Positions 28,382 to 57,713 of a stretch of 64,000 nucleotides of DNA are shown here, in pieces. A program made the position numbers and the translations under genes. Every line of letters begins with the position of its first letter. Position 1 is the stretch's first letter. The notes under the pieces are model-generated. The model was given only the letters and a program-made list of their open reading frames with translations. It did no database searches and was not told the DNA's origin. The DNA is from Liolophura sinensis (Eukaryota > Mollusca > Polyplacophora > Chitonida > Chitonidae): assembly GCF_032854445.1 (NCBI RefSeq), contig NC_088301.1:7114044-7178043 (forward strand), in the 5' to 3' direction.

Positions 28382-28387
28382 AAGGAT
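28382..28387. repeat. Left target-site duplication of E3 (AAGGAT)
   Basis: Direct copy of 46,979-46,984, immediately outside the inverted repeat. Six bases is the length known for Polintons. Confidence 0.85.
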
Positions 28388-28826
28388 AGTAGTATAGAAT
28401 GTGACTTAGGTGTCGCATTGAGGATTCATTTTTTGTGGTTTTGAGGATTTGTTTTTTGTGGTGATGTGGTGGTGACGTCACACCTGCCAGCCCGAAGGGC
28501 TGGGAGGTGTGACGTCACCCCTCAGTTGTGGGTTTTTTCCACGCCGCGGGGTGTATGTGTGTATAGACGAGTGTGATATAGTATAACCGTATAACAGTAT
28601 AGGGAAAAAAGAGAGAAAAAAAAAGAGGCAAAACGTCGGCTTGTAAAGTCGAGTGGGACAGCTCGAAAAGAGCTCCCGGGCGCCAAAACGGACCAATGGG
28701 TGAGCCGGATTTGCCCCCAAACTGCCCAATGGGAGGCCCGCAAAACGGACCAATCAGCGTGCGAGAAGAGGTTACGTAAGAAAAAACGAACCAATCAGCG
28801 TGTGGTGAATTTCCGCGTGGATAGGT
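28388..28826. repeat. Left terminal inverted repeat of E3
   Basis: It contains the AGTAGT terminus, two GAGGATT-type repeats, a 47-bp CRE palindrome (28,472-28,518), CCACGCCGCGGGG, a purine-rich tract, GGCTTGTAAAGTCGAGTGGG, GACAGCTCGAAAAGAGCTCC and ATTGG/CCAAT boxes. The first 360 bp match 46,978 back to about 46,620 in inverted orientation. Confidence 0.9.
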
Positions 28827-29095
28827 AGTATAACCGTATAACAGTATAGGGAAAAAAGAGAGAAAAAAAGAGGCAAAACGTCGGCTTGTAAAGTCGAGTG
28901 AGACAGCTCGAAAAGAGCTCCCTGGCGCCAAAACGGACCAATGGGTGAGCCGGATTTGCCCCAAAACGGCCCAATGGGAGGCCCGCAAAACGGACCAATC
29001 AGCGTGCGAGAAGAGGTTACGTAAGAAAAAACGAACCAATCAGCGCGTGGTGAATTTCCGCGTGGATAGGATAAAAGCCGGTGAAGACAGCGACC
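28574..29095 (+). promoter_or_regulatory. Duplicated CCAAT-box promoter module upstream of the PC4-like gene
   Basis: Two tandem units (about 28,574-28,826 and 28,827-29,067) each hold GACCAATGGG, GCCCAATGGG and GACCAATCAGC boxes spaced about 40-50 bp apart, plus TTACGTAA and a further AACCAATCAGC. GGATAAAAG at 29,067-29,075 may serve as TATA element. CCAAT boxes are NF-Y sites and TTACGTAA is a bZIP-type site; occupancy is inferred. Confidence 0.65.
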
Positions 29096-29281
29096 GACAG
29101 CCTCAGACGCACCTGACGCTCTACCGGCCTGACTGCCTGCCGACCTGCTTGCTGACGACCCGACCTACTGACCTGCCGAGAGACGAGAAGAGAAGAGAAG
29201 AGACTGCTACACGACCTACCTACCTGTACCTACCGGCCTACCTACCTACCTACCTGCCTACCTACCTACCTACCTGGCGAG

Positions 29282-30582
29282 ATGAAACGCTCCACCACCG
29301 TGAACCCCCTCCATGCTGCCATCAGGATGAAACGCTCAGCGTCTGTACCTGCCCGGCTATCCACCATAGCCGAACAACAACAACCTCCCGAGAAGAAGAG
29401 GAAGGTGTGCCTGCCCTTACCCAGCGAGGTTCTTGCCAAATTACAGCTGGCCTCCTGGCTGTGGGTGGGGGTGTGTAGAGACGAGACGATTGAGATTTGC
29501 CAATCACCGACAGACCCGAACGCTCCACCCAAACGCGTCAGGCTTGACGGGGTGGGGTGGACTCGGCTCAAGACCCTAGCTGCTGATCTACCTGAGGTCG
29601 GGTTACCTGTGCGGGAGCCACTCTCCAACGGGTACTTTCTGTCCACGCTGACGAACTCGGAGGGTGTCCTGTACGTTCATGTGAAGAAATGGCGAGCCTA
29701 CCAGCCGAACGGTCGACTCTACCCGACGAGTGAGGGTATCACGCTCAAGTACTGGACTTACTGGCAAAAACTAGTCCAGGCCATCCCCGACATCGACGCC
29801 TTGGTGCTGGTGGTGATCGAGGCTGGCGATAACGACGACATCCAAGAGCCCCAAGACCCCCAAGACTCCCAAAAGCCGGGGATGGAGATGGAGATGATGG
29901 AAACGGAGGAGGGGAAGACTGAAGAGACTGGAGAGACTGGAGAAACTGGAGGGACTGGAGGTGGGGTGAATGCTGCTATGAGTGCTGTTTTGACCGCTGC
30001 TGTGACGGCTGCTGTGACGGTTGCTGATGAGGAGACTGCTACTGCAACCCCCAGCATCCCCGACATCCCAGTGGAAAAGGTGGAAAAGGCGGACCCGTTA
30101 AACCCTGAGCTTGAGACGGCGCTAACAGCCTTGCTGTGGCAAGCTTACGATGTAGCTCTCCAACCCCACCTCCTCAAGTTACAGCGCGATGTGTACGGTC
30201 GACAATCCACCAACACCGCGAGTGATTCATCTCCTCCCCGGCCTCCCTTGCTGGAGAACCGAGAGCTGGCCCTGAGTATCGTGGACGAGGCCCGTATGCG
30301 TTACCTGAAAGAGGGACCTGTGTTGGTCAAGTTCATGCGCCAGGCCCGTAAGGCAGCCTCCCTCCCGTGGGCTGTGGAGAAGAGTGTGAAAGACCAACTG
30401 CGGCAGTTTTTAAATGAGACGCCGATCAACAAATCGAACCCAGCATTCGCCCAGATGTACGTGGAGTATTTGATGACAGCCAACAACCTCTCCGCACCTG
30501 ACGAGCAGCCTACAATCCGGCCTAACAACCAAACCAACCAGCCTACCCAGGCTACCCAGACCACCCAGGCTACGATGACCGA
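29282..30582 (+). CDS. PC4-like ssDNA-binding domain protein, exon 1 (best-preserved copy)
   Basis: The 433 codons are open from ATG 29282. The N-terminus has repeated MKRS motifs and a PPEKKRKV nuclear-localisation-like signal (about residues 35-42). Residues 115-175 (GYFLSTLTNSEGVLYVHVKK, TSEGITLKYWTYWQKLVQAI) match the PC4/SUB1 coactivator fold pattern, which binds single-stranded DNA in transcription and replication. A Glu/Met/Gly/Thr acidic linker, an Ala/Val-rich region and a C-terminal helical domain (LALSIVDEARMRYLKEGP, VKFMRQARKAASLPWAVEK) follow. The frame would end GAGTGA, but that is also a consensus donor (GA|GTGAGT at 30,583). A (CCTA)n leader precedes the ATG. It is the only Polinton gene retained in E3. 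Confidence 0.7.
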
Positions 30583-30695
30583 GTGAGTGTGTTTTTGTTT
30601 TAACTGCACCACCCTTACCCAGCTTTTTTTTTGTTTGTTTTTTTTTTCCCTTCATACATTCTCGTTTTGTGTTTACCTATGTGTGTTTTTTACAG

Positions 30696-30792
30696 GGAGA
30701 TGACTAGGGTGGTGCACGTTATAAACATTGACCAGTGTCAGGACTTTCATATTGGCGATACAATCGTCATCACGAGACATTTCTCACCGTGA
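30696..30792 (+). CDS. Alternative terminal exon 2a of the PC4-like gene, E3
   Basis: The TTTTTTACAG acceptor ends at 30,695. Joined to the donor at 30,583 the frame reads EEMTRVVHVINIDQCQDF and stops at TGA 30,790-30,792. AATAAATAAA near 30,863 could be its poly(A) signal. Conserved in P1 and P2. Confidence 0.5.
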
Positions 30793-31047
30793 CACCAAAA
30801 TAATGGACACTTACAGCATGTATTTATTCGTTCATTCGTTTGTTCACTGTTCGAGTTCGAAAAAATAAATAAAAAAAAGTTTTCAGGTTGACGACCCTGG
30901 TCTTTGGTGTTGGTTATTGTCTTTACCTGTTGGTGAAGGGATAGTCTATCTATCTATCTATCTATCTATCGTTTTGATTGATGTGGCTAGGGTTCGGTCG
31001 GTGACGGCATTAGAATGACGACGGTGTCTTCTTTATGTCTTTTCTAG

Positions 31048-31345
31048 CCTGGCGAAGCTCCGTACAACACCGCAATGGAAAGACTGGGTAGCTGTCGTCA
31101 CCGACCTGCAAAGTTACACAAGGCTACTTCGTAGTATGTTTGCGGATGGTAGGGTGAACGAGGGACGACTGCAGGTGCTGCAAGCGTACACTGAAGACGT
31201 CTGTCAGCATGTCGAGGATTCCCGACCTATTCAAGCGTATTACGTAGAGATTGTTCGTCCCACGTTAATGTACGAAGTGCGACTCCCTCCCAACCACACA
31301 GAGGTCTATCAACGCTCCGTGTTACAGACCTGTACATTGCTGTAA
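31048..31345 (+). CDS. Alternative terminal exon 2b of the PC4-like gene, E3
   Basis: The TTTTCTAG acceptor ends at 31,047. Joined to the 30,583 donor (GA + C) the frame continues LAKLRTTPQWKDWVAVV and on to TAA at 31,343-31,345, about 99 residues without known motif. All three element copies keep this exon open, which argues for a real protein part. A (CTAT)n microsatellite lies upstream at 30,944-30,969. Confidence 0.6.
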
Positions 31346-31417
31346 AGAATAATACTAATACTGTTACCTTACTATGGAATCCATCCCCGGTGTTTTTGTG
31401 TTTTCTTTTAATCATGG

Positions 31418-31925
31418 TTATAAGGAATTGCCTGATTACAAGGATTGTAACCGCCGCCAAGAAGATCTGCGTCATCATGCGGGTTATAACCATGATCAGG
31501 AAGATTTATGTGATGACAAGGATTAAAACTGCGGGTATAACGAACTGCCTGATCGCAATGGTTATGATCACCGCCAAGAATGGTTATGATACCAGGCAAA
31601 AAGAATTGCCTGACCACAAGGTTTATAACCACCGCCAAGAAGAGTTGTCTGATCAGAAGGGTTATGAAAGCAGGCAGAAAGAATTACCTGACCACAAGGG
31701 TTATAACCCCACGCCAAGAAGAATTGTCTAATCACATGAGTTATGAAAGCAGGCAGAAAGAATTGCCTGACCACAAGGGTTATAACTCCCGTCAAGAAAA
31801 GTTGTCTGATCAGAAGGGTTATGACCGTGACAATAAGGAAGTAACTGGAAACAAGGGTTATAGCCGTGACAATGAAGAAGTGACTGACAACCGTGGCAAT
31901 GAAGAAGTGACTGACAACAAGTTTG
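31418..31925 (+). repeat. 39-bp coding-type tandem repeat (13-residue GYxxRQxELPDxK units)
   Basis: About 13 diverged units of 39 bp. In the best frame they read GYESRQKELPDHK, GYNSRQEKLSDQK, GYDRDNKEVTGNK and GYSRDNEEVTDNR. Several upstream units contain stops or small indels. It is an eroded repeat-protein exon or a minisatellite that happens to stay in frame; the 13-residue hydrophilic pattern favours a former coding exon. Confidence 0.65.
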
Positions 31926-32727
31926 GGCGTAATTCAACTTTTCACATGTATCTCAATTCGGTTTTATTAGAGTAGATACCTTATTTTGTTCAGGGTCATT
32001 TTCTGCCATGAAAATGTTTAACAACAGGACAAAAAGGCACAGTTTATCCCACATTTCCACTCTTTTCAGTCACACAAAGAGTGTTAACGGTTATTAGACT
32101 CTTAAGTCTTTAAACTGGCTTTTGAATGATGCATGCAGATAAGTCGCATTAGTAAAATTCTTCATATGAATTCCATTTGTTTTAATATCAGGTTATGAGT
32201 GTGCAGATTTTACTGTAGTAGTATATTATTAAAGTGAATTTATTATTTCGAAACTTATTTTATAATGATATGTCTTGTATAGCTAACTGCAACCAGGTGA
32301 AGGGGCATATTTACACGTAAAATTTCGAATAGTTTTCTACTTATGACTTGTGTTCTTCAAATGATGTATGACCGTATGGATCACTAGCCTTTTACCAATA
32401 TCCGCCGGTCGTGTGCGGGAAAGCCTGTGGGTGACTTAACGAACGCCGGTGGTTTACTTCCAACCCAACATCGTACATATGTACAGTATTGTTGCGTTCG
32501 GCATTAAATCTGAAACAAAAAAAAAAGCAAATGGACTATCTAACACAATTGTCACGTGAAAATAAAACAATACAGAAAACATTTGTTAAATAGATATCGA
32601 ATGCAATCACTGAGAGTTCAAGTCCAGCTCATGCTTCCTTCCTGTCCGGGCCGCGGTCGAAATCTAAACAAGTTTTGTGTTATATCAGCACACTGTCAGA
32701 CATCATATGTTTGGCTCGCACACTAAA
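31926..32727. other. AT-rich spacer inside E3
   Basis: No gene or recognisable repeat. It contains several short runs of A and T and nothing with Polinton or host gene similarity that I can see. Confidence 0.4.
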
Positions 32728-32890
32728 TAGGCTTGTAAAGTTGAGTGGGCCAGCTCTTGGTCGCCAAAAACGGACCAATGGGTGAACGGGATTTACCCCA
32801 AAACGAACCAATGGAGAGCCCGCAAAACAGACCAATCGGCGCGAGAAGGGGGTTACGTAAGAAAAAATGGACCAATCGGTTATGTAAGGG
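32728..32890. repeat. Fragment of the TIR/CCAAT module inside E3 (1)
   Basis: GGCTTGTAAAGTTGAGTGGG, GACCAATGGGTGAACGGGAT, ATGGAGAGCCCGCAAAACAG and GGTTACGTAAG occur in the same order and orientation as in the left TIR. Confidence 0.8.
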
Positions 32891-33149
32891 GACTATTTTC
32901 GCTTTTGTAAGGGGACTATGTCGCGTGCGCGGATGGAGATGGGCGTGGTGAGGTCACGTATCACTACGCGTGTCTCAGGTACAAAAAAAAAATGGCGCGT
33001 CGTATTTTTTGAGAACCATATAGGTTGGTGCATTTTTTTTTTTTATTAGCCATAGACGACAAGCTGCTCCAAACTTCACCACAGACATTCACACCACATT
33101 CCCAGGCCCCCGCCTACTCCGATACATGGTGGTAAATGATAGGTAAATG

Positions 33150-33560
33150 ATTAGCCCTGACAAGAGCTGTTGGGTTTTAGCCTTGATAAGGGTTGCTGGG
33201 AAATAGATATTTTTTTTGACAGATATACTTACACTTTTGCTTGCAACAAGCCACAGTAGGAGTATATCCTATATCAAAGCAGTGATATGGATTTTAATGG
33301 ATAAGGATTCAGTGTAACGCACACGTTGTAGTGTATCTGTTAGGGGTCTCCCCCGACCAGAGAATCCGGCAAACGTGCCACCTGGCCTGTGGCGGAGCGC
33401 GGACGTCAACGAAATCGGTCCGGCGAGCCGCACGGTTGTTGAGCGACGACCAGCCTGCCAGCCTGCCTAAACATTGTTGGCAGCCAGGCAGGCATAGCAT
33501 CCAACCGACCGTGCTGTTCACCGTAGACGGTCTTGTATACAGTGTTACCAACCAGTCGGG
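33150..33560. repeat. Relic shared with the 12.0-12.15 kb and 14.7 kb Polinton spacers
   Basis: CTGACAAGAGCTGTTGGG, ATAGATATTTTTTTTGACAG and TATCTGTTAGGGGTCT match the sequence upstream of PolB (12,025-12,150). ACATTGTTGGCAGCC and a partly matching GTATACAGTGTTACCAACC arm resemble the hairpin at 14,693. This is evidence that Polinton interior once lay here. Confidence 0.6.
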
Positions 33561-34204
33561 CTGTGATTAACCACGCATGATCAACCACAGCTGACAAGCC
33601 ACGGCTACCTACCTATCTGGATGGTTCCTATGTATTATGTATAAAAAATGTTTAGGTTATAGACGACTCGTTGAAGTGATATGGTCTACTGCGTGTAATT
33701 ATGTAGGTGACATGTGGATGTGTTTTTTTTCTACTCCATGTAGATAAGTGCGCGAGAACGAGTTATGTAAGGGGGACTATTTAGCGTGGGCGGATGGTGA
33801 TGGGAGTGGTTAGGTCATGTATCACTACGCGTGTCTCAGGTAAAAAAGACAACGTAATGATGCTTGTTTTATTTTTGCATATGTATACTTTTTAATTCAA
33901 GCATTAAGTCATTTGAAAACCTGTAGCTGGAAGGTGGGTTATTTCACATTCTTGTTAACATTTGGCAGTGAAGTGGAAGTACAGATTTATTGTTGTTGTC
34001 CCCTATATCACATATGGTCCAATCGCTACATGTACGACTCAACATTATTCAAGAATTTATGAGACATGCGCATAAATGGTTATTCATTCTTGAATTGCCT
34101 TCGTCATTCAAAGGTTAATCAGGAGCTTTTCGGTAATTTGGGCTGTCCTTCCCAAGATGCAGTCATTTTAATCTGCTCTGCTGTGTTTGCCTTATTTGCG
34201 CATG
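33561..34204. other. Spacer inside E3
   Basis: No gene. GGACTATTTAGCGTGGGCGG and TCACGTATCACTACGCGTGT-like sequences occur here and at 32,885-32,980, showing a further local duplication. Confidence 0.4.
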
Positions 34205-34503
34205 GCTGGGAGTGACGTCACACCTGTGACGTGTCAGGTGTGTGTCAGGTAGTGGTGGTGGTGGTGGGTTTTTTCCACGACGGGGTGTGTATACTAGAGT
34301 GGAGTGTAGTATAATAGAGTATAGTATAGGGGCAGTGGTGGTAGTGGGAGTGAAAAAAAGAGGCAAAACGTCGGCTTGTAAAGTTGAGTGGGACAGCTCG
34401 AAAAGAGCTCTTTGTCGCCCAAAACGAACCAATGGGTGAGCGGGATTTGCCCCCAAAACGGACCAATGGACGGCCCCCAAAACGGACCTATCCGCGCGCG
34501 AGA
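34205..34503. repeat. Fragment of the TIR/CCAAT module inside E3 (2)
   Basis: GTGACGTCACACCTGTGACG, GGGTTTTTTCCACGACGGGG, AGGCAAAACGTCGGCTTGTA, AAGAGCTC and three CCAAT/CCTAT boxes follow the left-TIR order and orientation; the outer tip is missing. It directly precedes a zinc-finger exon, so it may act as that exon's promoter. Confidence 0.8.
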
Positions 34504-34836
34504 ATGGTTGGAGATGGAGATGGAAAGCATGCAGGTGAAGGGAAGAAGAAGAAGCCGTTTACCTGCATGATGTGCGCCAGGGACTTCAGTCGGTGGGACG
34601 ACTGGCTGCGTCACCAGCAGACGCACCACCACCCCTCACCACCATGCACACCACCAACCCCAGAAAAAAGGGTTCACCTGCCCAACCTGCGGGCGGGCGT
34701 TTTCCCGACGGGAGCATTTGGTGCGCTGCCAGCGGGAGCGTGGAAAAAAACAACGAGCGTGTGTGCGATTGCCTGTGGTAAAACTTTTTACCGATTGTGG
34801 GACTGGCGTGTCCATCAACGTGGGGAACAGGGCCAG
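34504..34836 (+). CDS. C2H2-type zinc-finger exon
   Basis: The ATG at 34,504 starts a Lys-rich leader and a classical finger, FTCMMCARDFSRWDDWLRHQ followed by QTHH (C-x2-C-x12-H-x3-H). A second finger-like unit (FTCPTCGRAFSRREHLVRC) lies in another frame near 34,668-34,725, implying a frameshift, and a third Cys-x3-Cys unit (CAIACGKTFYRLWDW, then RVH) returns to the first frame. The exon ends in a strong donor CCAG|GTAAGT at 34,837; no matching downstream exon was found. It could be a DNA-binding regulator gene of the element or a captured host exon. Confidence 0.6.
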
Positions 34837-36111
34837 GTAAGTGCTTTTTTTATTTTTTATTTTATTATTATGAACACTTTTTTAACACCAACACAACATT
34901 ACAGGAATGAACAAATTATCTTTGGAAGTTTAAACATGGTCGTGGTATGGACATCCCTGCCTTGCTTACTATTCATTTATTGATTTGATTGGGCAATGGT
35001 GGTGTACGTCACACTCAAGAAATGTTTACTTATACAAAGGCGACCAACATTTTGGTGGGAGGAATTTGTGCATAGCCCAGAGGACACCCACAACCATGGG
35101 CAGGTTGCTGGCAGACCTTCCCATGTACGGCACGAAAGGAAGCCAGCATGAACTGGACTCACAGCGACCCCAGTGTGGAGAGGTTCCTGGGTCACATGTC
35201 ATATACATGTAGTAGATTAACATATAGATTATAGTTCTAAAAACTTGTTTTCTTAACTCAGAAACTGGATAATTTGTACCAGGAATTATCAAAGAGTTCA
35301 AGTGAGTTCAATCTGGGATTAAGATAGACTGCCTTAATCCGAGACTTAATAAACACCCAAACAAGTACACTTTTATATGTGCTCTATGGGTGAAACAAAC
35401 GTTATCAGAAGTCCAGAAATCAGTATTTCTTTAGCTCTGTTTTCAGTAATGGTTTTCATTTCCCATGTATATGTATTTGTTCACGTGTGGATGCAGTGGG
35501 CCTCTGCGGACGCTTTACTCTATCAGTATAATATGGAATACGGGAGGTAACTGCTCCGTCTGTTGTTGATGTACTTCCGGTCGTATCATGAACGTCTGCT
35601 GTTCGGTACTGTTGCCATCTTGCAGAAGCCGCTTTCATCGCTACAACAACACCAGTCAGAAAAGCAGAAATTGTAAGTGCATCTCCTGAAGAGTAAGCCC
35701 AAACGCGGCGTCTTCAGATAGCGTTCGGATTTGTCACTGATTCCTTACAGCCATGGTCGATCCCAGAATCAAGCCTATAGTAATCCAGGCGGGTGTGGTC
35801 ACCAGGTAAGTCTGACTTTTACTCAGACGTGTCATGTAGGCCTATACTTAACAGGTTCTGTATATTAAACCAGCAGTATAATTGATCGATACAGATGATA
35901 GAAAATTAAACTGAAATTTCAAAATGAAAAAAGAAAAAAAATTAACTCTATTTGTCAAAATATACGGTCTTTATTATAACACATTATAATACAAACCTTT
36001 CTCATGCGAGCCATGTTTAGGCAGGTGTTTAGTTTCCAGGCCCTAATCTAAGTTATACGTGTATATCCATGTCTGAAAGATTGAAATGCCGGATCAATAT
36101 AAATGTACCGT
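34837..36111. other. Spacer inside E3; no gene recognised
   Basis: Short frames only. A CAGGTAAGTCTGAC donor-like site stands at 35,803 after a short open stretch (ATGGTCGATCCCAGAATC at 35,753), which could be a small upstream exon, but I cannot support it further. Confidence 0.35.
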
Positions 36112-36182
36112 AGGTCATCCATGGCTGATCACATGATCTGTTGGAAGCGTTCCACAGGTGGGTCGGGGTGGTTGGCATAGCT
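36112..36182 (-). pseudogene. Inverted fragment of the last exon of the A1CF/RBM46-like gene
   Basis: On the minus strand this stretch repeats 45,59x-45,66x: it encodes [16 protein letters not shown] and continues through the stop region into CCATGGATGACC of the 3' UTR. About 47 bp are identical. It lies about 900 bp upstream of the gene and in opposite orientation. Confidence 0.9.
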
Positions 36183-36204
36183 GGCATAGCATGGAGCTGT
36201 TGGA

Positions 36205-36290
36205 GCTGCTCCACTCGACTTTACAATCCGACGTTTTACTCCTTGTCGCGCTCATTGGTCTGTCTTGGACGTCGCAGTGCGAAAGTTTGC
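36205..36290. repeat. Fragment of the TIR/CCAAT module (right-TIR orientation)
   Basis: GAGCTGCTCCACTCGACTTT, ACAATCCGACGTTTT and CATTGGTCTGTCTTGG match the right TIR at about 46,690-46,735. It directly adjoins the inverted last-exon fragment. Confidence 0.75.
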
Positions 36291-36499
36291 CTGGAACATG
36301 ATAAGCTGTTCTAGAAGACAATGCAGAAGCTAGAACCACGCGAAAACAAAATTTGTTTTTTCTATTTTTGAATATTACACAGGACAATGCCTGTTGTCAA
36401 ATCGATGTCAGCGATAGTAGATTGGATTCGGGTCATTTTCAATCACCCAGATAGTTGGTATAGCCGAACACTCACTGAAGTATAAACACATGCCATATT

Positions 36500-36975
36500 T
36501 CGTACTATGAATGGTTCAATTTTCGATACTTGAGACTCGCAGGTGAACTGCTTTTCGCAGTGGCACAGCGAGTGCTACATAACCGTATGCCTCCAAGTTA
36601 TCAGCTTATTTTTTCACCTATATGTTGCCTTACACGTTTCTGTGATCATATTCTTTGGATTTGGTGTCTTTTCTATGTACATTGGAATAAAACAATAATT
36701 GTTGGACATCGTAGATGGCGCTGTAGGGCTCTTCTCACATTTCGTACTATGAACGGTTCAATTTTCGATACTTGAGACTCACGGGTGAACTGCTTTCGCA
36801 GTGGCACAGCGAGTGCTACATAACCGTGTCCCTCCAAGTTATCAGCTTATTTTTTTACCTATATGTTGCCTTACACGTTTCTGTGGTCATATTCTCTGGA
36901 TTTGATGCCTTTTCTATGTAAATTTGAATAAAACAGTAATTATTGGACATCATAGATGGCGCTGTAGGGCTCTTC
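36500..36975. repeat. Two tandem inverted copies of the SINE/MITE-like repeat
   Basis: Units at about 36,500-36,735 and 36,736-36,970 share TTTCGTACTATGAA, GGTTCAATTTTCGATACTTG, CAGTGGCACAGCGAGTGCTA and GACATCRTAGATGGCGCTGT. They are the reverse orientation of 24,995-25,345 and stand directly upstream of the first coding exon. Confidence 0.75.
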
Positions 36976-37063
36976 TAAGTCCACGCACGTGCGTGGCAAA
37001 GTCCAGTTTGCCTACTTCTAGTTCGTCAGCAGTGAGACCAGCAGGGTGCAGCAGGGTGTAGGT

Positions 37064-40000
37064 ATGGCGTCCGCGGAGGAGGCTTTGCCACGTCGTGTGA
37101 CCCGGGAGCCAAACGAAACCTTGCTGAAACTTACGGCGAGAACAGGATACACCATACGGCAAGAAAAATGGCAAAGAAAGTACGGCGGTCCACCTCCCGA
37201 CTGGGAAAGCCGGGCTCCTTTAAAGGGTTGTGAAATTTTCGTCGGAGGTATTCCAAAAGACTGTTACGAAGACGAGCTCGTTCCAGTATTTGAGAAGATA
37301 GGAAAGATTTACGAACTGAAACTCGTAATGAACCGTCGCTCTGGATCTGGACCCCATAGAGGATATGGATTCGTTAAATACACTAACAAAGAACACGCGA
37401 ATCAAGCGGTAAAGGAGCTTCACAACTACGAAATTCGTAAAGGCCAGCTCTTGTGTGTTCGCAACTCTTCTGTAAGTCATGTAATTTCCACTATAGAAAC
37501 TTTTTTGGTTGTCTCTTCGTTGCAAATTAAAACACATTTAATTGCCAATGTAGACGGCACCAGACGTCGGAAATATCGGTTGGTTAGTTGTAAAATTCAC
37601 GAGTAGGTACCACAGTCCAAACAAATTTGACCTTTATGTAAGCCGTTATTTGAAAAGTTATAATTGAACTAAAATTTTTTGTATCAGAGGGGCATTTTGT
37701 GTGGGTGGATATGTGTAAAATGTCGCGTAACTTCTTGCAATTTCTTATCGTCTGCTCTTTCATTTTCCGTCACGAGAAGGTGGTGTGCGCGCGTGCAGCA
37801 TTTGTTGCATTTTCTGTCATGAGAGGGTGGTGTGCGCGCGCGCGCGCAACATTTCTTGCAACAAGTGATTTCTTTTGTATGGGAGGCTGTGGTGATAATT
37901 AATATAGTCACTTATGGCTGAAAAGCACTGATGCGTCGTCATCTTTTACATTAATATTGTGCATATTTGTATGACTGGAATAATATTTATGTTGTGCATA
38001 TTTGTATTACAGAAGGTGGTTTTGCACGTGGGGAACCTTATGTCGACAACTACAGAAGACAAAATTAGAAAGCTGTGCAGTCAAGTTGTGGGAAGAGATA
38101 ACGCTGTGGAAAGAGTAAAGAAGATAAGAGATTATGCATTCATTCGTTTTAGCGACAAAGATGCTGCTATCAAGGCCATGGCTAAACTTAATGGTGAGAA
38201 AAATTATTTATTTTGGAGTTGTGTTGATTGGTTTTGGATAAATACAAATGCATTAACGGAAGTATATTTTTTCTATCGGTAGGCGAATGTAGTTTTTGTG
38301 TGCATTTATAGAGTGTGATATATTTCCATTCGGATAGTTCTGTTTCTGATAAGTAAAAGTTCATTTTCGTTTGTCAGTCGCGTGTGGCACATTAGTATGT
38401 TTTAACTAGTTTTTCCACTTGATTGATGTTTACAGAAAATTACATGATAGAATATCCACCAACATCTAAGGGAGAATATTTGGAAAACATGCTAACTCAA
38501 GTAATTAAGATGAAACAGTGAATAACTGACGCATCGCTTGCCTATAGGATGTTTGATACTCCAACTACGTACAGGAAATGGCTCACATTTATGGGACAGA
38601 CTTACATATATTTACAGAAGAGCACATACAGTATAAATTCACACTTCAAAACATAAGGTGTGGGCATTCTCTAGAATATTTGTTTGGATAAATTTCTGTA
38701 TAAATTGGCTTTTATGGTAGCTTATTATTAACTTAATATCACCCCTCATTCAACATGGATGGGAAGGTCTGCCAGCAACCTGTGAATGGTTGTGGGTTTC
38801 CACCAGGCTCTGCCTGGTTTACTCATGCTATAATGCTGATCACCGTCGTATAAGTGAAATATTCTTGAGTACAGCGTAAAAACGGGCCAATCAATAAATC
38901 ATTCAGCATGAAAAGAAGCTGTTGAACATTAAATGATCAAATGTTTAAAAGAGGGAAGTTGTTTCAACAGTTACATGTAATAGGCTGAATATTGAACCCA
39001 AGATCCCGGGACCATTTTGCCGGGAATTTTTTGAGAAAATAAGAAGTTTTCTTTGGGAGAAACTCTAGGTAGACTGTATCTGGAACACTTTTTTAACTGA
39101 TGTGTAGCATTTGTACTACGTCCTCATTCTTTCAAGAAATAAAATTAAAGGAAGATCAAGGTGAGAAGGCGTTATATAATAAGTCATGTATATTTCTCTC
39201 TAGGAATGAATGTTGAAGGTGCTTACATTGAGGTTGCATGGGCAAAAGGAAGAGAGCGGGTAAGAAATCATTTGGTCAATGTTGCTGCCACATCGTGAAA
39301 ATCGTCTCAAATGTGTAATTCAGGACAGCCCAGCGATCATCCTCTTCCATAGGTTAAGTTTGTTTGCAACATAGTATGTGGAGTAAACTGTGTTAAGTTG
39401 GAAGAGTTCAAATGTTTTCAAATTGAGAGTTTGTGGAAGGTATTTGGTCGGAAACCGGGACCTGTCCACATTTTTCCCCCATCAGCTTTCTTTCACCATT
39501 GTAAACTCATCTGTCGTGTATGTGTGAAGTAAGCTTTGCATATAAAAACCAAATTATTTATATATATTTATATCAGGTAAATAATTGAATTTTACTACTG
39601 ATGAAAATTCTTTATGGCGGGTTAATCAGGACCGACACTTGGGTGAGGTTGATAGAGCATACAACAGAGGCTCAGAAGCGTTGAAATCTTGGAAGCAGAA
39701 AGAAGTATCACCTGTCAGGGTAAGAGTTCCTCATGTGGTAGGATAACATTATTTGTTGTGTCAACCATTGAAGGTATATTCCCCTTCACAATGAAGAGAA
39801 ACTAACTATTAGGGAGACAATCCACTCAGAACTACACATGTAATTATACTCACCTGGGCCACGAGTGGAAGGGTAAGGGGTTCTCATATGTCAGCATAAG
39901 AGTTTCTGGTATGTAAGCATAGGGGTTTCAGATCCGGTATGCAAGGGTAGGGAATGCCACTGATGGCTTATGATGTTGAAATTTTCCAGTGTGTAGAAAT

Positions 40001-43000
40001 ATTGAAGGCCTTGGACTGCCACTTGGGTGAGGTTGATAGAGCATACAACAGAGGCCAGGAAGCGTTGGAATCTTGGAAGCAGAAAGAAGTATCATATGTT
40101 AAGGTAAGAGTTCCTCGTGTGGTAGGCTAGGGGGTTCTGTTATGTCAAGGTAAGAGTTCCTCGTATGTTAAGGTAGGGGGTTCTCATATATCTGGGTAGG
40201 AGGTTCTCATATGTCAGGGTAAGAGTTCCTCATATGTCGGGGTAGTGGGCTCTGTTATGTCAGGGTAAGAGTTCCTCGCATGTTAGGGTAGTGGGCTCTG
40301 TTACGTCAGGGTAAGAGTTCCTCATATGTTAAGGTAGGGGGTTCTCATATATCTGGGTAGGAGGTTCTCATATATCTGTAGGGGGTTCTCATATATCTGG
40401 GTAGGAGGTTCTCATATGTCAGGGTAAGAGTTCCTCATATGTCGGGGTAGTGGGCTCTGTTATGTCAGGGTAAGAGTTCCTCGCATGTTAGGGTAGTGGG
40501 CTCTGTTACGTCAGGGTAAGAGTTCCTCATATGTTAAGGTAGGGGGTTCTCATATATCTGGGTAGGAGGTTCTCATATGTCAGGTGTGTGTGAAGTAAGC
40601 TTTGCATATAAAAACCAAATTATTTATATATATTTATATCAGGTAAATAATTGAATTTTACTACTGATGAAAATTCTTTATTGCAGGCTAATCAGGACTG
40701 CCACTTGGGTGAGGTTGATAGAGCATACAACAGAGGTCAGGAAGCATTGGAATCTTGGAAGCAGAAAGAAGTATCATATGTCAGGGTAAGAGTTCCTCAT
40801 GTGGTAGGATAGGTGTGAAGTAAGCTTTGCATATAAAAACCAAATTATTTATATATATTTATATCAGGTAAATAATTGAATTTTACTACTGATGAAAATT
40901 CTTTATTGCAGGCTAATCAGGACTGCCACTTGGGTGAGGTTGATAGAGCATACAACAGAGGCCCGGAAGCGTTGGAATCTTGGGAGCAGAAAGAAGTATC
41001 ATATGTCAGGGTAAGAGTTCCTCATGTGGTAGGATAACATTATTTGTTGTGTCAACCATTGAAGGTATATTCCCCTTCACAATGAAGAGAAACTAACTAT
41101 TAGGGAGACAATCCACTCAGAACTACACAAGTAATTATACTCACCTGGGCCACGAGTGGAAGGGTAAGGGGTTCTCATATGTCAGCATAAGAGTTTCTGG
41201 TATGTAAGCATAGGGGTTTCAGATCCGGTATGCAAGGGTAGGGAATGCCACTGATGGCTTATGATGTTGAAATTTTCCAGTGTGTAGAAATATTGAAGGC
41301 CTCATATGTGTAGTATAATGCCTTAGCCTTTCAGGTCGTTGATTAAAAAATGATTAGAACTACATGCTAAAAATCTTTAATAATAACTTTTTTTTAATCA
41401 GTGTATAATACTATATTCAAGAATTGTCACATTATTCCACCACGATCAGGTTTATGGATGGAGGAAATTGGAGTAAGACCTGGATTTGTACATGAATTTA
41501 TAGGTCAAGTACCTACAGTGGAAGCAAGTCAGCTGTTCAACCCTTTGAGCGAATCTGCTTTCATGCATGCTTTGGTTGTATGACAAGTGTACTTGATACT
41601 GTGACAAATTTTTCAGGGCTATGGCTATGATTTTGATCCTAGTTAAATTATTTATATATATTTATATCAGGTAAATAATTGAATTTTGATGATGAAAATT
41701 CTTTATGGCAGGTTAATCAGGACTGTCACTTGGGTGAGGTTGATAGAGCATACAACAGAGGCCAGGAAGCGTTGGGATCTTGGAAGCAGAAAGAAGTATC
41801 ATCTGTCAGGGTAAGAGTTCCTCATGTGGTAGGATAGGGGGTTCTGTTATGTCAGGGTAAGAGTTCCTCATATGTCAGGGTAGTGGGCTCTGTTATGTCA
41901 GGGTAAGAGTTCCTCGTATGTTAGGGTTGTGGGCTCTGTTACGTCAGGGTAAGAGTTCCTCATATGTTAAGGTAGGGGGTTCTCATATATCTGGGTAGGA
42001 GGTTCTCATATGTCAGGTATGTGTGAAGTAAGCTTTGCATATAAAAACCAAGTTATTTATATATATTTATATCAGGTAAATAATTGAATTTTACTACTGA
42101 CGAAAATTCTTTATTGCAGGCTTATCAGGACTGCCACTTGGGTGAGGTTGATAGAGCATACAACAGAGGCCAGGAAGCGTTGGAATCTTGGAAGCAGAAA
42201 GAAGGATCATATGTCAGGGTAAGAGTTCCTCATGTGGTAGGATAGGGGGTTCTGTTATGTCAGGGTTAGAGTTCCTCGTATGTTAAGGTAGGGGGTTCTC
42301 ATATATCTGTAGGGAGTTCTCATATATCTGGGTAGGAGGTTCTCATATGTCAGGGTAAGAGTTCCTCATATGTCAGGGTAGTGGGATCTGTTATGCCCGG
42401 GTAAGAGTTCCTCGTATGTTAGGGTAGTGGGCTCTGTTACGTCAGGGTAAGAGTCATGTGTCAGGGTAAGAGTTCCTCATATGTCAGGGTAGTGGGCTCT
42501 GTTATGTTAGGGTAAGAGTTCCTCGTATGTTAAGGTAGGGGGTTCTCATATATCTGTAGGGAGTTCTCATATATCTGGGTAGGAGGTTCTCATATGTCAG
42601 GGTAAGAGTTCCTCATATGTCAGGGTAGTGGGATCTGTTATGTCCGGGTAAGAGTTCCTCGTATGTTAGGGTAGTGGGCTCTGTTACGTCAGGGTAAGAG
42701 TCATGTGTCAGGGTAAGAGTTCCTCATATGTCAGGGTAGTGGGCTCTGTTATGTTAGGGTAAGAGTTCCTCGTATGTTAAGGTAGGGGGGTTATGCATGC
42801 TTTGGTTGTATGACAAGTGTACTTGATACTGTGACAAATTTTTCAGGGCTATGGCTATGATCCTAGTTACTCGCCTCCATTGTATTACAACCCGATGTCT
42901 CCACCACCCGCAAGGTAAGAACTATTTTGGCCTGAAATCCACAACTCTGTTCACCCGATATAAGAATACAGATGAGAATCCAGCACAGCAGATGATCTGA

Positions 43001-45644
43001 CAGTCAGAATAGAGTTGTATTCTTGGAATTTTTATAAAAATCAGTTAGCTTAGAACAATATTTGCGGAATTAAGAGCATAGGTTGTCATATTCCACCGTG
43101 TGTGTCCAGTTTGTCTGTTTAATATCAGGGTTCTCAGAAGTATCAGATGCTCTGTCATTTGTGTGCTTCAGACCAGGAACAGGATATTTGTCTTTGGTTT
43201 TAAATCATTTCAGTTGTGATCATCTAAGATGAAATTTTACCTTATGATTTGTCTGTAATAACTGTAACTGTAAATAAGCATATGTAAGTGGTTTTTACAA
43301 AGTACAGTATTGTAGCTCTCCTGCTGATATGCTAATGGATACAGAGTACAGAGTGAGAACTAGAAAAATGACATGGGTAAGTCTACTTTGGCAACTGAAA
43401 TCCAAAATGAGGTAATGACGGATTTCAGTTGGAAGGTGCTTCACACGGAGCAGAAATATTTGCAAGACTGTGCAAGGCATAGCTTTATTGAAAACAGGCG
43501 ATTTTATTGAATGGTAGGGGCTTGCTTTTTGCCAAGAATTAATGTGAACTTCGTACCACCTGTGACCTATATTCTTTAATTGTCACTCTGTAGCTTTCCA
43601 TTCAACAGCATACATGTAGGAAAGGTACACTACCATATTTAGTGGTTTTGCCATTGTGGTTGATAGAGTCATTTGACGTGAAAGAAGTTGCATTTATGTG
43701 TTATCCATGCAATGTCCTCAAAAAAACGTATTATGAGCTTCTTACATGTAAGTATACAAAGAAGCATTAAGTTTCATCAACCAAACCTGAATAGCTCAAT
43801 ATATTTGATTTTATGTGAACATCTCAGGAGGAAAAGCAGGAAGAAGAAACTTTAAGAAGGCTCAGTCACATAATTTTTACCATGAAATAGCTTGAATATT
43901 TGTGCTTTTTGTACTGTTAGCAGGGCGTTGGCAGGGCGAGGTCCCATGGGCATCAGAAGCCCTGTGCGAGGCCGAGGGATGATGCTGAGGGGGTGTGGCT
44001 TTAGGAAACATCCAGCGGAGGTGTGTATCGTTGTCAATGCAGAAGGTTTCCGGTCCCATATCCCATTAAAAAGTTGCGCATTGCAACTTATTCTGAAGCA
44101 TGCTTAAAGGATTACGCAGTCTTAAAATCTATAATCTGCCTACGCCGTACTAAAAGACATGAACCGATTGTGCAATTAACCAGAAGGTGAGTTAGTTCAG
44201 TTTCGTTGAAGATGGGTGTTTGTTTAAACTTTGAAGTAACAGGGAACATACTTAGAAACTAATTCTTATCTAATATTTCCTATACATGTAATGAGTTTTG
44301 AATTAAATTTCGTTAATCAGGTGTGTTAATAGCTAAAAAATTGGCTGTTTTGTTATCATTGAAAGTTGTCATAATGCAAGGCTCTGTGTTGAACCTTTGA
44401 CCATGATTTTGTTTTGTGGAAGAATTTTTTGTTTTACTAATTACCTTTAATTTATAGCCCGATTGCCCTAGTGAGGCTTCAGTAAATCAAGAATGTCATG
44501 CATGTAACGATGTTCACTATAGGTGCTCGATGACCTTTGTCAGAAGAATGGATGGGGAAGTCCTGTATACCAGCTTCATTCTCTCATGGGAAGGGGTGGA
44601 AGTGGTGCCCAACAGCTCTTAGAGCTCTTTTTGTACAAGGTACTACCATAGGTTTCAACAAAATGTTGATAAGAAACTTGTTTGAAGAGATAAGAATCAA
44701 GTTCTTTTGCTGGAATGTAACTTTTTTTTTATTATTTATTTATACAATTAATCATGTCCATGTGTACCTGAAAGAATAAGAAGTAAATTATCTTATAAAA
44801 ATAATTGATCTGAAGTAAATCGAAAAAAGAATGTCGTGGTTGGGGTTTATACATGTATAAGTATATGTAGAAGTTGATGTTAGGCATTTACATTGTTAAT
44901 CTATGGTAAAGTACATTTGTCTTTCAGATCACCATACCAGCTCTCGGTACTCAGTTTCCAAATCGTAACCCATTTACCCCAAATAAACTGTGTCCTACTG
45001 TTGAGGGGGCAAAGGTTTTTGCAGCAGAGTACACTTTGATGCAGTTAGGTGTGCCTCTTGAAGGTAAAGTTAGTGTCCAGATAAAAAAGGAAAGACAAAC
45101 AAATGCTTCACCGCCCAAGCTCTACCCTTTTTCACTTATGATACCTCATTGAAAAAGTGGCCATTGTATGCTTTGATGTCTTCTTTCTTTCCTGAACCAG
45201 CTTTGCTTCTTGATTTAAGAAAGTAAGAGCTATCTCATGTTACATGTTTGTAACAGTATATGAAAAGTATAAAAAAAACTTCTTTACTGGATCATATGTA
45301 ATAAGACATGCTGCAAAAAACTTAATTGCTGGAAATTACTATTCGTAGCTGAGCTGTTTGCCGTTATGTAAGCACTTGTGACATGCATCAGGTATTCTGT
45401 GTGTTAGCAACTCGTTTGAGGAATGAATGGTTAAATACTCACATACATACACGCATGCGGTTACCCAAGTATATTTTGAATGAATATTAGCCAGGAAAGT
45501 AACTATTTGCATAACTAGAATTGTCAGAGTTTATTGTTTTGTGCTGCAGCCCTAGAGTGCATTAGCCCACCATGTCCTTACACCCAGCCGAGCTATGCCA
45601 ACCACCCCGACCCACCTGTGGAACGCTTCCAACAGATCCTGTGA
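37064..45644 (+). CDS. A1CF/RBM46/RBM47-like RNA-binding protein, multi-exon, cargo of E3
   Basis: Exons as read: 37,064-37,471; 38,013-38,193; 39,204-39,259; a 99-nt exon in six copies (39,621-42,218); 42,847-42,914; 43,924-44,020; 44,523-44,639; 44,928-45,063; 45,550-45,644. All junctions keep frame. Exon 1 holds the family signature [12 protein letters not shown] and RRM1 ([38 protein letters not shown]). Exons 2-3 hold RRM3 ([29 protein letters not shown]). RRM2, present in family members, is not found. Exon 5 is Tyr/Pro-rich, exon 6 has RGRG repeats, and exons 7-8 form the DND1/A1CF-type double-stranded RNA-binding domain ([32 protein letters not shown]). Family members edit or bind mRNA, several in the germline. 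No lesion was seen, so it may be expressed. Confidence 0.85.
38740..38915 (+). repeat. SINE copy in intron 2 of the RNA-binding gene
   Basis: GGAAGGTCTGCCAGCAACCT, GGTTGTGGGTTTCCACC and CCGTCGTATAAGTGAAATAT, then TTCTTGAGTACAGCGTAAAA form the 3' half of a SINE that I recall as widespread in molluscs. A related copy lies at 63,298-63,484. Confidence 0.65.
40104..40585 (+). repeat. Intronic minisatellite built from the exon-4 5' splice site (block 1)
   Basis: Units of about 20-46 bp alternate GTCAGGGTAAGAGTTCCTC, GGGTAGTGGGCTCTGTTA and GGGTAGGAGGTTCTCATAT. The first is the last bases of exon 4 plus its donor, so each such unit carries an extra CAGG|GTAAGA site. Confidence 0.85.
41617..41646 (+). 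pseudogene. Partial duplicate of exon 5 with a stop
   Basis: After TTTTTCAG the sequence GGCTATGGCTATGATTTTGA repeats the start of exon 5, then reads CCTAGTTAA, a stop. The flanking 55 bp (TGCATGCTTTGGTTGTATGA) also occur before the real exon at 42,793. If spliced in, it would end the protein. Confidence 0.75.
41811..42019 (+). repeat. Intronic 5'-splice-site minisatellite (block 2)
   Basis: Same unit types as 40,104-40,585, lying between exon-4 copies 5 and 6. Confidence 0.8.
42219..42790 (+). repeat. Intronic 5'-splice-site minisatellite (block 3)
   Basis: The longest block, after exon-4 copy 6. It includes a higher-order repeat of about 240 bp (two near-identical halves starting near 42,290 and 42,530). 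Confidence 0.8.
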
Positions 45645-45789
45645 AAAGCCATGGATGACCTTTTATCATTTATTTTCAATATCATTTTTATCATTTACAC
45701 GTATGGGCTTTGTTAGGTTCCCCCATAGCAAGTACTGCAAGTTTATGTTTCGGTATATCCTTTTGTATTTCAGATTTTTGATAGAAAAG

Positions 45790-45795
45790 AATAAA
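45790..45795 (+). promoter_or_regulatory. Polyadenylation signal AATAAA of the RNA-binding gene
   Basis: AATAAA lies about 150 bases after the TGA at 45,642-45,644 and is followed by A-rich then T-rich sequence. It is inside E3, so the gene has its own 3' end within the element. Confidence 0.55.
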
Positions 45796-46069
45796 ACATT
45801 GAAAAAAGAATTTTTTTTAATATAACCTGGTAGTTGTTTTCTCCTTCATGGTCATTTGGTTGTCTTGTGTATATGTGTGTTAAGATTAGTGGATAAAGAA
45901 TAATTGAATTTAACCGTTTAAGAAATGGCTGTTACATATCTTGCTTAAATATGTGGATGTTGGTGAAAATATAGATGCTGAAAATATGTGTGAAATACCA
46001 TCACATTGATCTCCTCCAAGTTTCTTATAAGCTTCGAGATTTTCTGATCCAAGTTTTTTTCTCTTTTTT

Positions 46070-46500
46070 TTTCCCCTATACTCTACTGTGCTCTATTCCA
46101 CTACACCGCCTATATATAGTATAGAGTAGAGTAGAGTATAGTATAGTAGAGTCTCCAGTGTACGTGCATGTTTGGGTGTGGTGTCGATCCATCCATCCCT
46201 ACCACAACCAGCAGGTAGACAGACAGGCAGATCACCCAAAAAAAACCCCACCGACAGGGTCTACGGTTCATAACACCGACCCTCTGCCTGCAGCAGTGAG
46301 CCTTCCTGGGCGAACAGTGTTGCAAAGACACGCTGAGCGATCCTACCCACCAGTCAGCCTGCAGTCAGGCCAACACTGTTGTCAGCTGTGCTTTGTTTTG
46401 ACACGTGGTTTTTGTTTGGACACGTGGTTTTTGATCGGCTGCGCCTTGTATACATTGTATACATTGTCGCCAGCCAGCCGGTGCGTCAATACATAACGCT
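46070..46500. repeat. Fragment of Polinton interior (integrase/PC4 spacer) in E3
   Basis: The segment matches 21,437-21,845 of P2 in the same orientation: TATATATAGTATAGAGTAG, GTTTGGGTGTGGTGTCGATC, CTGCCTGCAGCAGTGAGCCT, and TGTATACATTGTATACATTG. It is evidence that the right arm of E3 descends from the same Polinton family after loss of the gene block. Confidence 0.85.
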
Positions 46501-46978
46501 AGTATACACACATACGCCCCGCGGCGTGGAAAAAACCCACCAAACTCCCCATCGAAGGGGTGACGTCACACCCTTTGGGCTGGGTTCATTTTTTCCCCGT
46601 CTCCCCACGGAAAGGTCCGTTTTGCGGGCCCCCCATTGGGCAGTTTGGGGGCAAATCCGGCTCACCCATTGGCCCGTTTTTGCGCCCGGGAGCTCTTTTC
46701 GAGCTGTCCCACTCGACTTTACAAGCCGACGTTTTGCTCTTTTTTTTCTCTCTTTTTGCCCTATACTGTTATACGGTTATACTATATCACACTCGTCTAT
46801 ACACACATACACCCCCGCGGCGTGGAAAAAACCCACAATCTGAGGGGTGACGTCACACCTACCAGCCCTTCGGGCTGGCATGGTGTGACGTCACCACCAC
46901 ATCACCCACAAAAAACAAATCCTCAAACCACAAAAAATGAATCCTCAATGCGACACCTAAGTCACATTCTATACTACT
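46500..46978. repeat. Right terminal inverted repeat of E3, with an extra partial copy
   Basis: About 46,620-46,978 is the complement of the left TIR, ending CTATACTACT. Before it, 46,500-46,600 holds another partial piece (CCCCGCGGCGTGGAAAAAAC, GTGACGTCACACC), showing repeated recombination between TIR copies. Confidence 0.9.
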
Positions 46979-46984
46979 AAGGAT
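46979..46984. repeat. Right target-site duplication of E3 (AAGGAT)
   Basis: Direct copy of 28,382-28,387 directly outside the right inverted repeat. Confidence 0.85.
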
Positions 46985-49284: not shown

Positions 49285-49739
49285 TCAAACCTTCTTAGTA
49301 CCATATATAAGAATTGTACCCTCATCTCTGAGGGCAAACCCATTAAAAGTTGTATGGTAGATCTCATACGTCACCTCCTGTACCAAACCTTTAACTGGCC
49401 CCAGACGCTGGACATGTACGTTTATGCCCTCGTCTGGGACCAGGACCACAGCAAATCTCTTCCTCCCACTCCCCCCCCCCCCCCCCCCCACTCCCCCACG
49501 TTTATGCCCTCGTCTGGGACCAGGACCACAGCAAATCTCACTCCCCCCCCCCTTCCATAGCAGACCCCTAGAAACTTGGGAGTACCACATTCGTTTGCCG
49601 CGAAAGTCCATTTGAGAGCTTTTGCTGAAACATTCATCATTTTAAAGTACGTCTCCAGTACGCATTGGATAGCAGCGAAAGTCCTGGCTACTGGACCGAG
49701 CAATATCTCCCCATATCTTGCTTGGCCCTTTGGTGCAGC
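49285..49739 (-). pseudogene. Terminal exon d of an unrecognised gene, copy A
   Basis: After acceptor CTTGCAG the frame reads GQARYGEILLGPVARTFAAI, KALKWTFAANECGTPKFLG and CYGR, then hits long G runs. Beyond them another frame gives FAVVLVPDEGINVHVQRLGP and ends GTILIYGTKKV with a stop at 49,285. In copy A the VLVPDEGIN segment is present twice, separated by G runs, so the reading frame is uncertain. Family not recognised. Confidence 0.5.
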
Positions 49740-50185: not shown

Positions 50186-50259
50186 GTGTTTTGTGTGTAT
50201 TCCTCCATCAAAGAGTTGAAATGTGTGATGCTTGTCAACACGACAAACTGTGGGATTCC
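50186..50259 (-). CDS. Internal exon c of the unrecognised gene, copy A
   Basis: 74 nt between CTCAG and CAC|GTAAG. In the phase that joins both neighbours it reads NPTVCRVDKHHTFQLFDGGI then HTKH. An identical-length exon is in copy B, and phases agree from exon b to c to d. Confidence 0.5.
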
Positions 50260-51974: not shown

Positions 51975-52003
51975 GCCTTGCGTATCACCATCCCCGGCCT
52001 TCT

Positions 52004-57688: not shown

Positions 57689-57713
57689 GACGTCAGAGAC
57701 AGACTAAACATTT

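What the first reader, a model, noticed from the sequence alone, without database searches (positions are those of the whole stretch)
28382..46984. A Polinton-type element with perfect TSD and long TIRs carries a complete intron-containing host gene
Seen: AGTAGT-type inverted repeats of about 360 bp at 28,388 and 46,978, AAGGAT directly outside both, a PC4-like Polinton gene at the left, a piece of Polinton interior at the right, and between them an A1CF/RBM46-like gene with all its introns and its own poly(A) signal. All Polinton replication and capsid genes are missing. Known: Polintons make 6-bp duplications and have AG-starting TIRs. Inferred: DNA-level capture produced a transducing, non-autonomous Polinton, perhaps mobilised by integrase from copies such as P2. 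A chance 6-bp match has probability of about 1 in 4,096.
Basis: partly seen in the sequence, partly recalled or inferred. Interest (0 to 1): 0.95.

Follow-up and report, generated by a model that had tools for sequence, protein, structure and literature searches.

The report
Virus-like transposon spreading a captured gene
In a chiton (a marine mollusc), a crippled virus-like transposon has swallowed a copy of one of the animal's own RNA-binding genes, introns included, and has pasted that gene into several chromosomes, one copy very recently.

Summary
28388-46978 has ~364-bp AGTAGT inverted repeats (96.7%) between perfect AAGGAT repeats. The window lies on contig C7 of a 609-Mb assembly matching the chiton Liolophura japonica/sinensis. 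Of 18 TIR pairs examined in that genome, 18 have perfect 6-bp target duplications and 6 carry the same composite (PC4-like arm, A1CF-like gene, TIRs) with different flanks: C7, C437, C4, C8, C13, C9. C437 differs from the window by about 0.05% but has other flanks and duplication TTCACA, so it moved recently. The C8 insertion interrupts a dispersed repeat whose uninterrupted copies show the empty site. The other 12 show ordinary Polinton ends; the one scanned (C1) encodes polymerase B, rve-chromo integrase and an ATPase-like frame. So this is a non-autonomous, gene-transducing Polinton family. Corrections: the gene is a derived A1CF copy without RRM2 (an RRM2-bearing relative, P0007, exists), and both cargo flanks look like the same Polinton end. 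Six of six copies read in full are open; amino-acid change exceeds intron divergence. Untested, because the genome search answered once in 48 requests: full inventory, parent locus, the window's own empty site.

The parts
28382..28387 (.). left target-site duplication AAGGAT
28388..28751 (+). left terminal inverted repeat, begins AGTAGT
   Evidence: genomic copies (40 of 211 candidates scored)
28579..29070 (+). tandem duplication of inner TIR (28579-28825 / 28826-29070, 97%)
29071..31409 (+). Polinton PC4-type arm, homologous to P1, P2 and ordinary genomic Polintons
29282..30583 (+).
   Evidence: name not confirmed by Pfam
31422..31865 (.). minisatellite with a period of about 39 bp at the inner end of the arm
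32730..32877 (+). internal relic of a Polinton TIR
34261..34990 (+). internal relic of the opposite (C2H2 zinc-finger) end of a Polinton: inner TIR plus diverged zinc-finger frame
36112..36244 (-). relic joining a TIR fragment (36197-36244) to an inverted fragment of the gene's last exon (36112-36182, 96%)
37064..37471 (+). exon 1 of A1CF-like gene, RRM1
38013..38193 (+). exon 2, RRM3-equivalent; RRM2 missing between exons 1 and 2
39204..39259 (+). exon 3
39501..42790 (.). intron-3 repeat array; similar repeat peptides appear in annotated relatives
42847..42914 (+). exon 4
43921..44020 (+). exon 5
44523..44639 (+). exon 6, DND1-type dsRBD
44928..45063 (+). exon 7, DND1-type dsRBD
45550..45644 (+). 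exon 8 with stop codon
45790..45795 (+). AATAAA poly(A) signal
   Evidence: read directly
46105..46496 (+). Polinton spacer that in P2 and C406 adjoins the PC4 arm
46503..46572 (-). partial TIR repeat at the right end
46614..46978 (-). right terminal inverted repeat
46979..46984 (.). right target-site duplication AAGGAT

Best explanation
It is a non-autonomous Polinton/Maverick that carries a host-derived, intron-containing A1CF-like gene (derived copy without RRM2) and moves as one ~17-21 kb unit, making a 6-bp target duplication at each insertion. Shown: composite structure, six insertions with own duplications and different flanks, an empty site for one, and a near-identical recent pair. 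Inferred: replication and integration are supplied in trans by intact Polintons with the same ends (such as C1). Also inferred: the gene was taken up as DNA when a duplicated A1CF copy became enclosed between two outward-facing PC4-type Polinton ends, by two neighbouring insertions acting as a composite or by recombination during replication.
For: 18 of 18 TIR pairs with perfect 6-bp duplications, 6 of them RBM elements. Same order of parts in C437, C4, C8 and C13, read nearly throughout, and in the 7.6 kb read at the two ends of C9. C437 versus window: 8 of 18,540 aligned bases differ in one count, 2 of 9,613 and 7 of 5,352 in separate alignments, eight exons identical, but TTCACA instead of AAGGAT and no flank similarity. 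Flanks of the six share nothing except a dispersed-repeat copy near C8 and C13, in opposite orientation. C8 empty site: joined flanks with one GACCGG align without a gap at the junction to uninterrupted repeat copies, best 85.6% over 180. Ordinary relative C1 encodes DNA_pol_B_2, rve+Chromo and an ATPase-like frame. Introns kept in C437, C4, C8, C13 and C406. P0007 with RRM2 is sister to 13 RRM2-less rows, window included (100/100). C406 joins the gene's 3' side to a PC4 arm, and the window's left arm is the same kind of end.
Against: No transposition was observed. Helper action and the capture route are inferred. C13 fits only with its outer right TIR; its inner right TIR end is followed by CCCCAT. 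The right arm of the window also resembles the zinc-finger end of ordinary Polintons over ~65-100 bp, so the claim that both ends are PC4 ends rests mainly on P2 and C406. C406's second end runs off its contig. Of 18 joined flanks only 4 matched anything across the junction in the sequence held, 2 of them (C10:21.9M, C3) only within their own tandem-repeat flanks. The window's own empty allele was not tested.
Confidence: 0.94

Rival explanations
1. An ordinary Polinton inserted at C7, and a segmental duplication carrying the gene later landed inside it; the gene never moved with the TIRs.
For: Interior relics of other Polintons and a dispersed repeat at 31.4-37 kb look like a graveyard.
Against: The same internal order, relics included, recurs between TIRs with different 6-bp duplications at C437, C4, C8 and C13, and the ends of the same composite at C9.
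Confidence: 0.02
2. The six copies spread by segmental duplication of a larger region, or are duplicate contigs of one locus (haplotigs), not by transposition.
For: C437 is a 34-kb unplaced contig about 99.9% identical to the window inside the element; the assembly was purged of haplotypic duplicates (passage), which can be incomplete.
Against: No similarity between C437 flanks (400 and 388 bp) and the window, and different duplications; six different duplications; no shared flanks among the six apart from one dispersed repeat; empty site at C8.
Confidence: 0.03
3. The gene was captured by template switching or fold-back during protein-primed replication (like the symmetric adenovirus-cell recombinants, recalled), rather than by two Polintons flanking it. 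This differs from the best explanation only in the capture step.
For: Both flanks look like the same terminus in inverted order. One ordinary element, C80, has zinc-finger ends on both sides, so one Polinton end can replace the other. TIRs and arms of RBM elements are mosaic with ordinary subfamilies: C13 TIRs group with ordinary C10:21.9M at 90/85, and arms are 94-97% against about 98.5% in the cargo.
Against: A composite of two neighbouring insertions gives the same end structure; internal relics of a zinc-finger end at 34261 fit either.
Confidence: 0.4

Closest known systems
Polinton/Maverick (polintovirus)
   Same: TIRs starting AGTAGT, 6-bp target duplication, 17-21 kb; the ordinary member C1 encodes PolB, rve-chromo integrase and an ATPase-like frame
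   Different: This element lacks those genes and carries a cellular gene with introns.
Nematode Mavericks with wosp protease and krma kinase cargo (Widen and colleagues; seen only as a passage in meeting report PMC10680173)
   Same: Host gene families carried as Maverick cargo.
   Different: There the Mavericks are described as coding for integrase, polymerase, capsid proteins and a fusogen; here nearly all Polinton genes are replaced. Gene, host phylum and structure differ, and no transfer between species is shown.
Pack-MULEs and gene-capturing Helitrons (passages in PMC6431247)
   Same: DNA elements that enclose host DNA; Pack-MULEs are mobilised in trans.
   Different: Those capture mostly fragments (full-length genes called exceptionally rare); here an open eight-exon gene, different ends, 6-bp duplication.
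Starship cargo transposons of fungi (start of abstract of PMC11623301 in the listing)
   Same: Giant elements carrying host genes.
   Different: Fungi; unrelated machinery with a captain gene (recalled).

Membership tests
Polinton/Maverick | long TIRs starting with AG | tested here: met
Polinton/Maverick | 6-bp target-site duplication (recalled as family mark) | tested here: met
   18 of 18 pairs
Polinton/Maverick | protein-primed polymerase B in the element itself | tested here: not met
   no such hit among ten P3 frames; present in C1: hence filed as non-autonomous member
Polinton/Maverick | retrovirus-like integrase in the element itself | tested here: not met
   absent in the P3 frames scanned; present in P2 and C1
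Polinton/Maverick | shared ends with autonomous members | tested here: met
   TIR 90-96% and PC4 arm about 88-96% identical to ordinary pairs, some over part of the length
Polinton/Maverick | capsid proteins in autonomous relatives | tested here: inconclusive
   C1 has unassigned 602-, 277- and 235-aa frames without Pfam hits
Pack-MULE | MuDR-type TIR and 9-bp duplication (recalled) | tested here: not met
   6-bp duplications, Polinton TIRs
Helitron | no TIR and no target duplication (recalled) | tested here: not met
A1CF/RBM46/RBM47 proteins | three RRMs plus DND1-type dsRBD (as in P0007; family rule recalled) | tested here: not met
   two RRMs plus dsRBD; RRM2 missing: a derived relative

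The most novel reading that the evidence does not exclude
The captured gene is no longer passenger DNA: the element has kept only its ends, one PC4-like gene and an RNA-binding gene that evolves faster at amino-acid positions than its own introns, so the gene may serve the element (for example by steering or shielding its transcripts, or countering host silencing), making it a satellite of Polintons armed with a stolen host gene.
Probability: 0.3. Interest if true: 0.93.

Novelty: new variant of a known kind. Interest (0 to 1): 0.86.

Why it matters
Here the vehicle, its ends, the target duplications, an empty site, an intact-looking helper candidate, an RRM2-bearing relative of the cargo and a transposition perhaps recent enough to be polymorphic all sit in one genome. 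It shows that a virus-like transposon can move a whole intron-bearing gene, and it makes helper dependence, capture route and cargo function directly testable. It also explains at least part of an apparent expansion of 'A1CF-like' genes in the annotation of this chiton.

Tried and rejected
Rejected: local chance match of the 6-mer (18 of 18 pairs). Rejected: C437 as an allele of the window (different flanks and duplication). Set aside: TIR divergence as a clock; in the TIR tree the C437 copies group with the matching sides of the window element, so left-right TIR differences are inherited. Set aside: i7 (45202-45378) and part of the right arm as proof of a zinc-finger end; the pieces are short and not colinear. 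Purifying selection was looked for and not found (pN/pS 1.3-3.3). Rfam and tRNA scans were empty. Homolog search with the PC4-like protein gave 2 hits (one Liolophura, one unnamed) and no linkage proof. Paper search for adenovirus symmetric recombinants: 0 papers held all three terms; 123 held at least three of four related terms, and none of the 10 titles listed was about it; the parallel is recalled only.

Not done because the genome search answered only of 48 requests: full inventory of gene copies, position of the RRM2-bearing relative P0007, position of P0004 (its contig length equals C11; the C11 TIR pair examined has ordinary ends), empty allele of the window site. One search scored 40 of 211 TIR candidates, so counts of elements are lower bounds. 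The full-length matches made 17 pairs (C13 with a third TIR) and five single TIRs. The five singles were sampled by 2-kb pieces: C9 proved an RBM element (its partner TIR found, the 18th pair), C406 a truncated one; C8:46.6M, C2 and C4:14.7k showed only ordinary Polinton parts in those pieces. Six of the 12 pairs called ordinary (C11, C8:51M, C12, C7:21M, C4:1.1M, C4:17.8M) were classed from 1.5-2 kb near each end only; the other six were read nearly throughout. On the second check I raised the fold-back capture rival from 0.35 to 0.4 because C80 proved to have zinc-finger ends on both sides.
Full report
What was checked. The ends are real. The left repeat 28388-28751 and the right repeat 46614-46978 are 96.7% alike over 369 columns, and AAGGAT lies directly outside both. 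The left arm (to 31409) matches two other Polintons in the same window, P1 and P2, and P2 carries an integrase frame with rve and chromo domains. The gene between the ends can be read as eight exons with GT-AG borders in one frame, giving 386 aa with two RRMs and a DND1-type dsRNA-binding domain.

Where it is. The 14 best protein matches (of 2,247; 120 listed) are all from the chiton Liolophura sinensis. The window is G000:C7:7114044-7178043 of a 609,464,459-bp assembly, which fits the published ~609-Mb, N50 37.34-Mb L. japonica assembly (abstract and one passage of PMC11068029 seen). That the two species names stand for this one assembly is my inference. Of the contig lengths given,178 recur exactly in this assembly (C8, C3, C11, C9, C406); 30,102,928 and 82,493,220 differ by a few kb from C13 and C6.

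Other copies. One genome search with the left TIR scored 40 of 211 candidates. I examined 18 paired ends: the window, ten pairs, six, and C9. In 18 of 18 the six bases outside both ends are identical (for C13 the outer right end is used). Six of 18 hold the RBM composite: C7 (AAGGAT), C437 (TTCACA), C4:19.4M (GACGTT), C8:7.8M (GACCGG), C13:9.1M (AACTTA) and C9:20.2M (CATAGC); C9 was read only in 7.6 kb at its ends. Their flanks share nothing with each other except a dispersed repeat near C8 and C13 in opposite orientation (C9 right flank only 25 bp). The other 12 showed no exon of the gene: six were read nearly throughout and six in 1.5-2 kb near each end. Ten of these 12 have the PC4 arm at one end and a zinc-finger frame at the other; C80 has the zinc-finger end on both sides; C6 has it on one side and neither on the other. 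A seventh composite, on the 37,178-bp contig C406, encodes exactly the annotated protein P0001 but runs off the contig.

Transposition. C437 and the window differ at 8 of 18,540 aligned bases in one count and at 2 of 9,613 and 7 of 5,352 in separate alignments; the repeat array makes the exact figure uncertain. No exon base differs, but flanks and duplications do. The C8 copy interrupts a dispersed repeat: its two flanks joined with one GACCGG align without a gap at the junction to uninterrupted copies, best 85.6% over 180 columns; the flanks of an ordinary Polinton at C7:21.0M do the same against the window's own repeat at 54865-55162 (82.9% over 298, single TACCCT). Two further joined flanks (C10:21.9M, C3) matched only their own tandem repeats, and the remaining 14 of 18 matched nothing across the junction in the sequence held.

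Who moves it. The ordinary element C1 has the same ends, duplication GACCGC, a 1,378-aa frame with DNA_pol_B_2, a 477-aa frame with rve and chromo, an ATPase-like frame and a C2H2 frame. The RBM composite shows no polymerase, integrase or ATPase among the ten frames scanned; only 1,207 of 14,695 interior bases match the chunks of six ordinary elements. Mobilisation in trans is therefore the natural inference; it was not shown. The 434-aa PC4-like frame is open in five of five RBM elements checked (window, C437, C4, C8, C13).

Origin of the cargo. P0007 (600 aa) has all three RRMs. Twelve other annotated Liolophura proteins and the window product lack RRM2 and form one clade next to it (100/100), with a stem of 0.17 against 0.01 for P0007 (three of these rows fill under half of the columns, and P0012, an isoform of P0011, was left out). 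tblastn of P0007 finds no RRM2 in the window apart from a 30% cross-match to RRM1. The simplest reading is that one derived DNA-level copy (introns kept) was amplified. P0002 and P0003 match the C8 and C13 copies exactly outside the repeat insert. P0005, P0006, P0010, P0013 and P0014 were not located, so whether the older copies also ride in Polintons is open.

Capture. In P2 the order inward from the end is TIR, PC4 arm, a spacer, integrase. In C406 the gene's 3' side is joined to a PC4 arm and that spacer (matching P2 21540-23082 and 23100-24225 at 88-89%). In the window the 3' side keeps the spacer (46105-46496) but has lost the PC4 arm, while the 5' side carries a PC4 arm of its own. So the two flanks of the cargo appear to be the same Polinton terminus in inverted order. 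Against this, ~65-100 bp of the window's right arm also match the zinc-finger end. A composite of two neighbouring Polintons, or fold-back recombination in replication, would both give such ends; C80, with two zinc-finger ends, shows that one end can replace the other. I do not decide. The elements stay in exchange with ordinary ones: arms are 94-97% alike where cargo is about 98.5%, and the C13 TIRs (inner right one used) group with an ordinary subfamily at 90/85 in a tree of 22 TIRs of 11 elements whose deep forks are weak.

Selection. Coding sequences of C7, C437, C8, C13 and C406 are open throughout, and C4 is open in two overlapping pieces: six of six. C7-C8: 13 nonsynonymous and 3 synonymous; C7-C406: 28 and 4; C8-C406: 34 and 3; C13-C406: 35 and 3; C7-C13: 14 and 3; C8-C13: 1 and 0. 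pN/pS is 1.3 (C7-C8), 2.0 (C7-C406) and 3.3 (C8-C406); the excess by binomial test has p = 0.49, 0.13 and 0.021. Against introns 1, 2 and 4-7 the nonsynonymous rate is higher: 3.13% v 1.62% (C7-C406, p = 0.006), 1.46% v 0.44% (C7-C8, p = 0.0017) and 1.57% v 0.44% (C7-C13, p = 0.0007). The comparisons share copies, no correction was made, and gene conversion in exon 1, where 11 of 16 C7-C8 substitutions fall, is an alternative. I read this as: no sign of purifying selection, and a hint of positive selection.

Against the literature. Maverick cargo is known from nematodes (wosp, krma; passage in PMC10680173); a review calls full-gene capture by Helitrons, as in Pack-MULEs, exceptionally rare (passages in PMC6431247). 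In the open-access library, no title or abstract start listed (6 of 6; 6 of 6; 15 of 54; 15 of 45; 12 of 319; 15 of 93) reports a gene-carrying, polymerase- and integrase-less Polinton family; 'non-autonomous Polinton' occurs in none of the 15 papers listed. Subscription papers were not searched. Hence: new variant of a known kind.

Noticed in passing
window 39501-42790 and proteins P0002-P0006, P0008-P0011, P0013, P0014: Repeat peptides ([16 protein letters not shown] units) sit in these annotated relatives where the window has its intron-3 repeat array: either exonised repeat or a gene-prediction artefact.
   Followed up: partly
C80:77806-96289 (L019, L020): An otherwise ordinary Polinton with the zinc-finger end on both sides and a piece of PC4 arm inside, so one terminus can be copied onto the other.
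   Followed up: partly
C13:9097334-9099638 (L054, L029): The C13 element has a second, outer right end: about 700 bp of other sequence, then a partial PC4 arm and TIR; only this outer end matches the left duplication.
   Followed up: partly
L064 3323-4976 (C9): The PC4-side end of the C9 element carries several tandem copies of the inner TIR; tandem inner-TIR copies also occur in other elements.
   Followed up: no
window 36112-36244: TIR fragment fused to an inverted fragment of the gene's last exon, present also in the C437, C4, C8, C13 and C406 copies, hence an older rearranged derivative inside the composite.
   Followed up: partly
window 47668-62259: Large tandem arrangement: 47668-52054 repeats at 53463-57713 (89-96%) and 52051-53464 repeats at 60846-62259 (99.3%); P2 is bordered by the same repeat at 24665-24954.
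   Followed up: no
exon 1 of C7 versus C8: Eleven substitutions in exon 1 but one in the adjoining 541-bp intron 1 (comparison chosen after seeing the data), so conversion from another copy or selection acted on exon 1.
   Followed up: partly
window 21454-21867 (P2): Spacer between integrase and PC4 arm present in P2, partly absent in P1 and absent in ordinary C1, C3 and C10:4.8M; parts resemble the zinc-finger end.
   Followed up: partly
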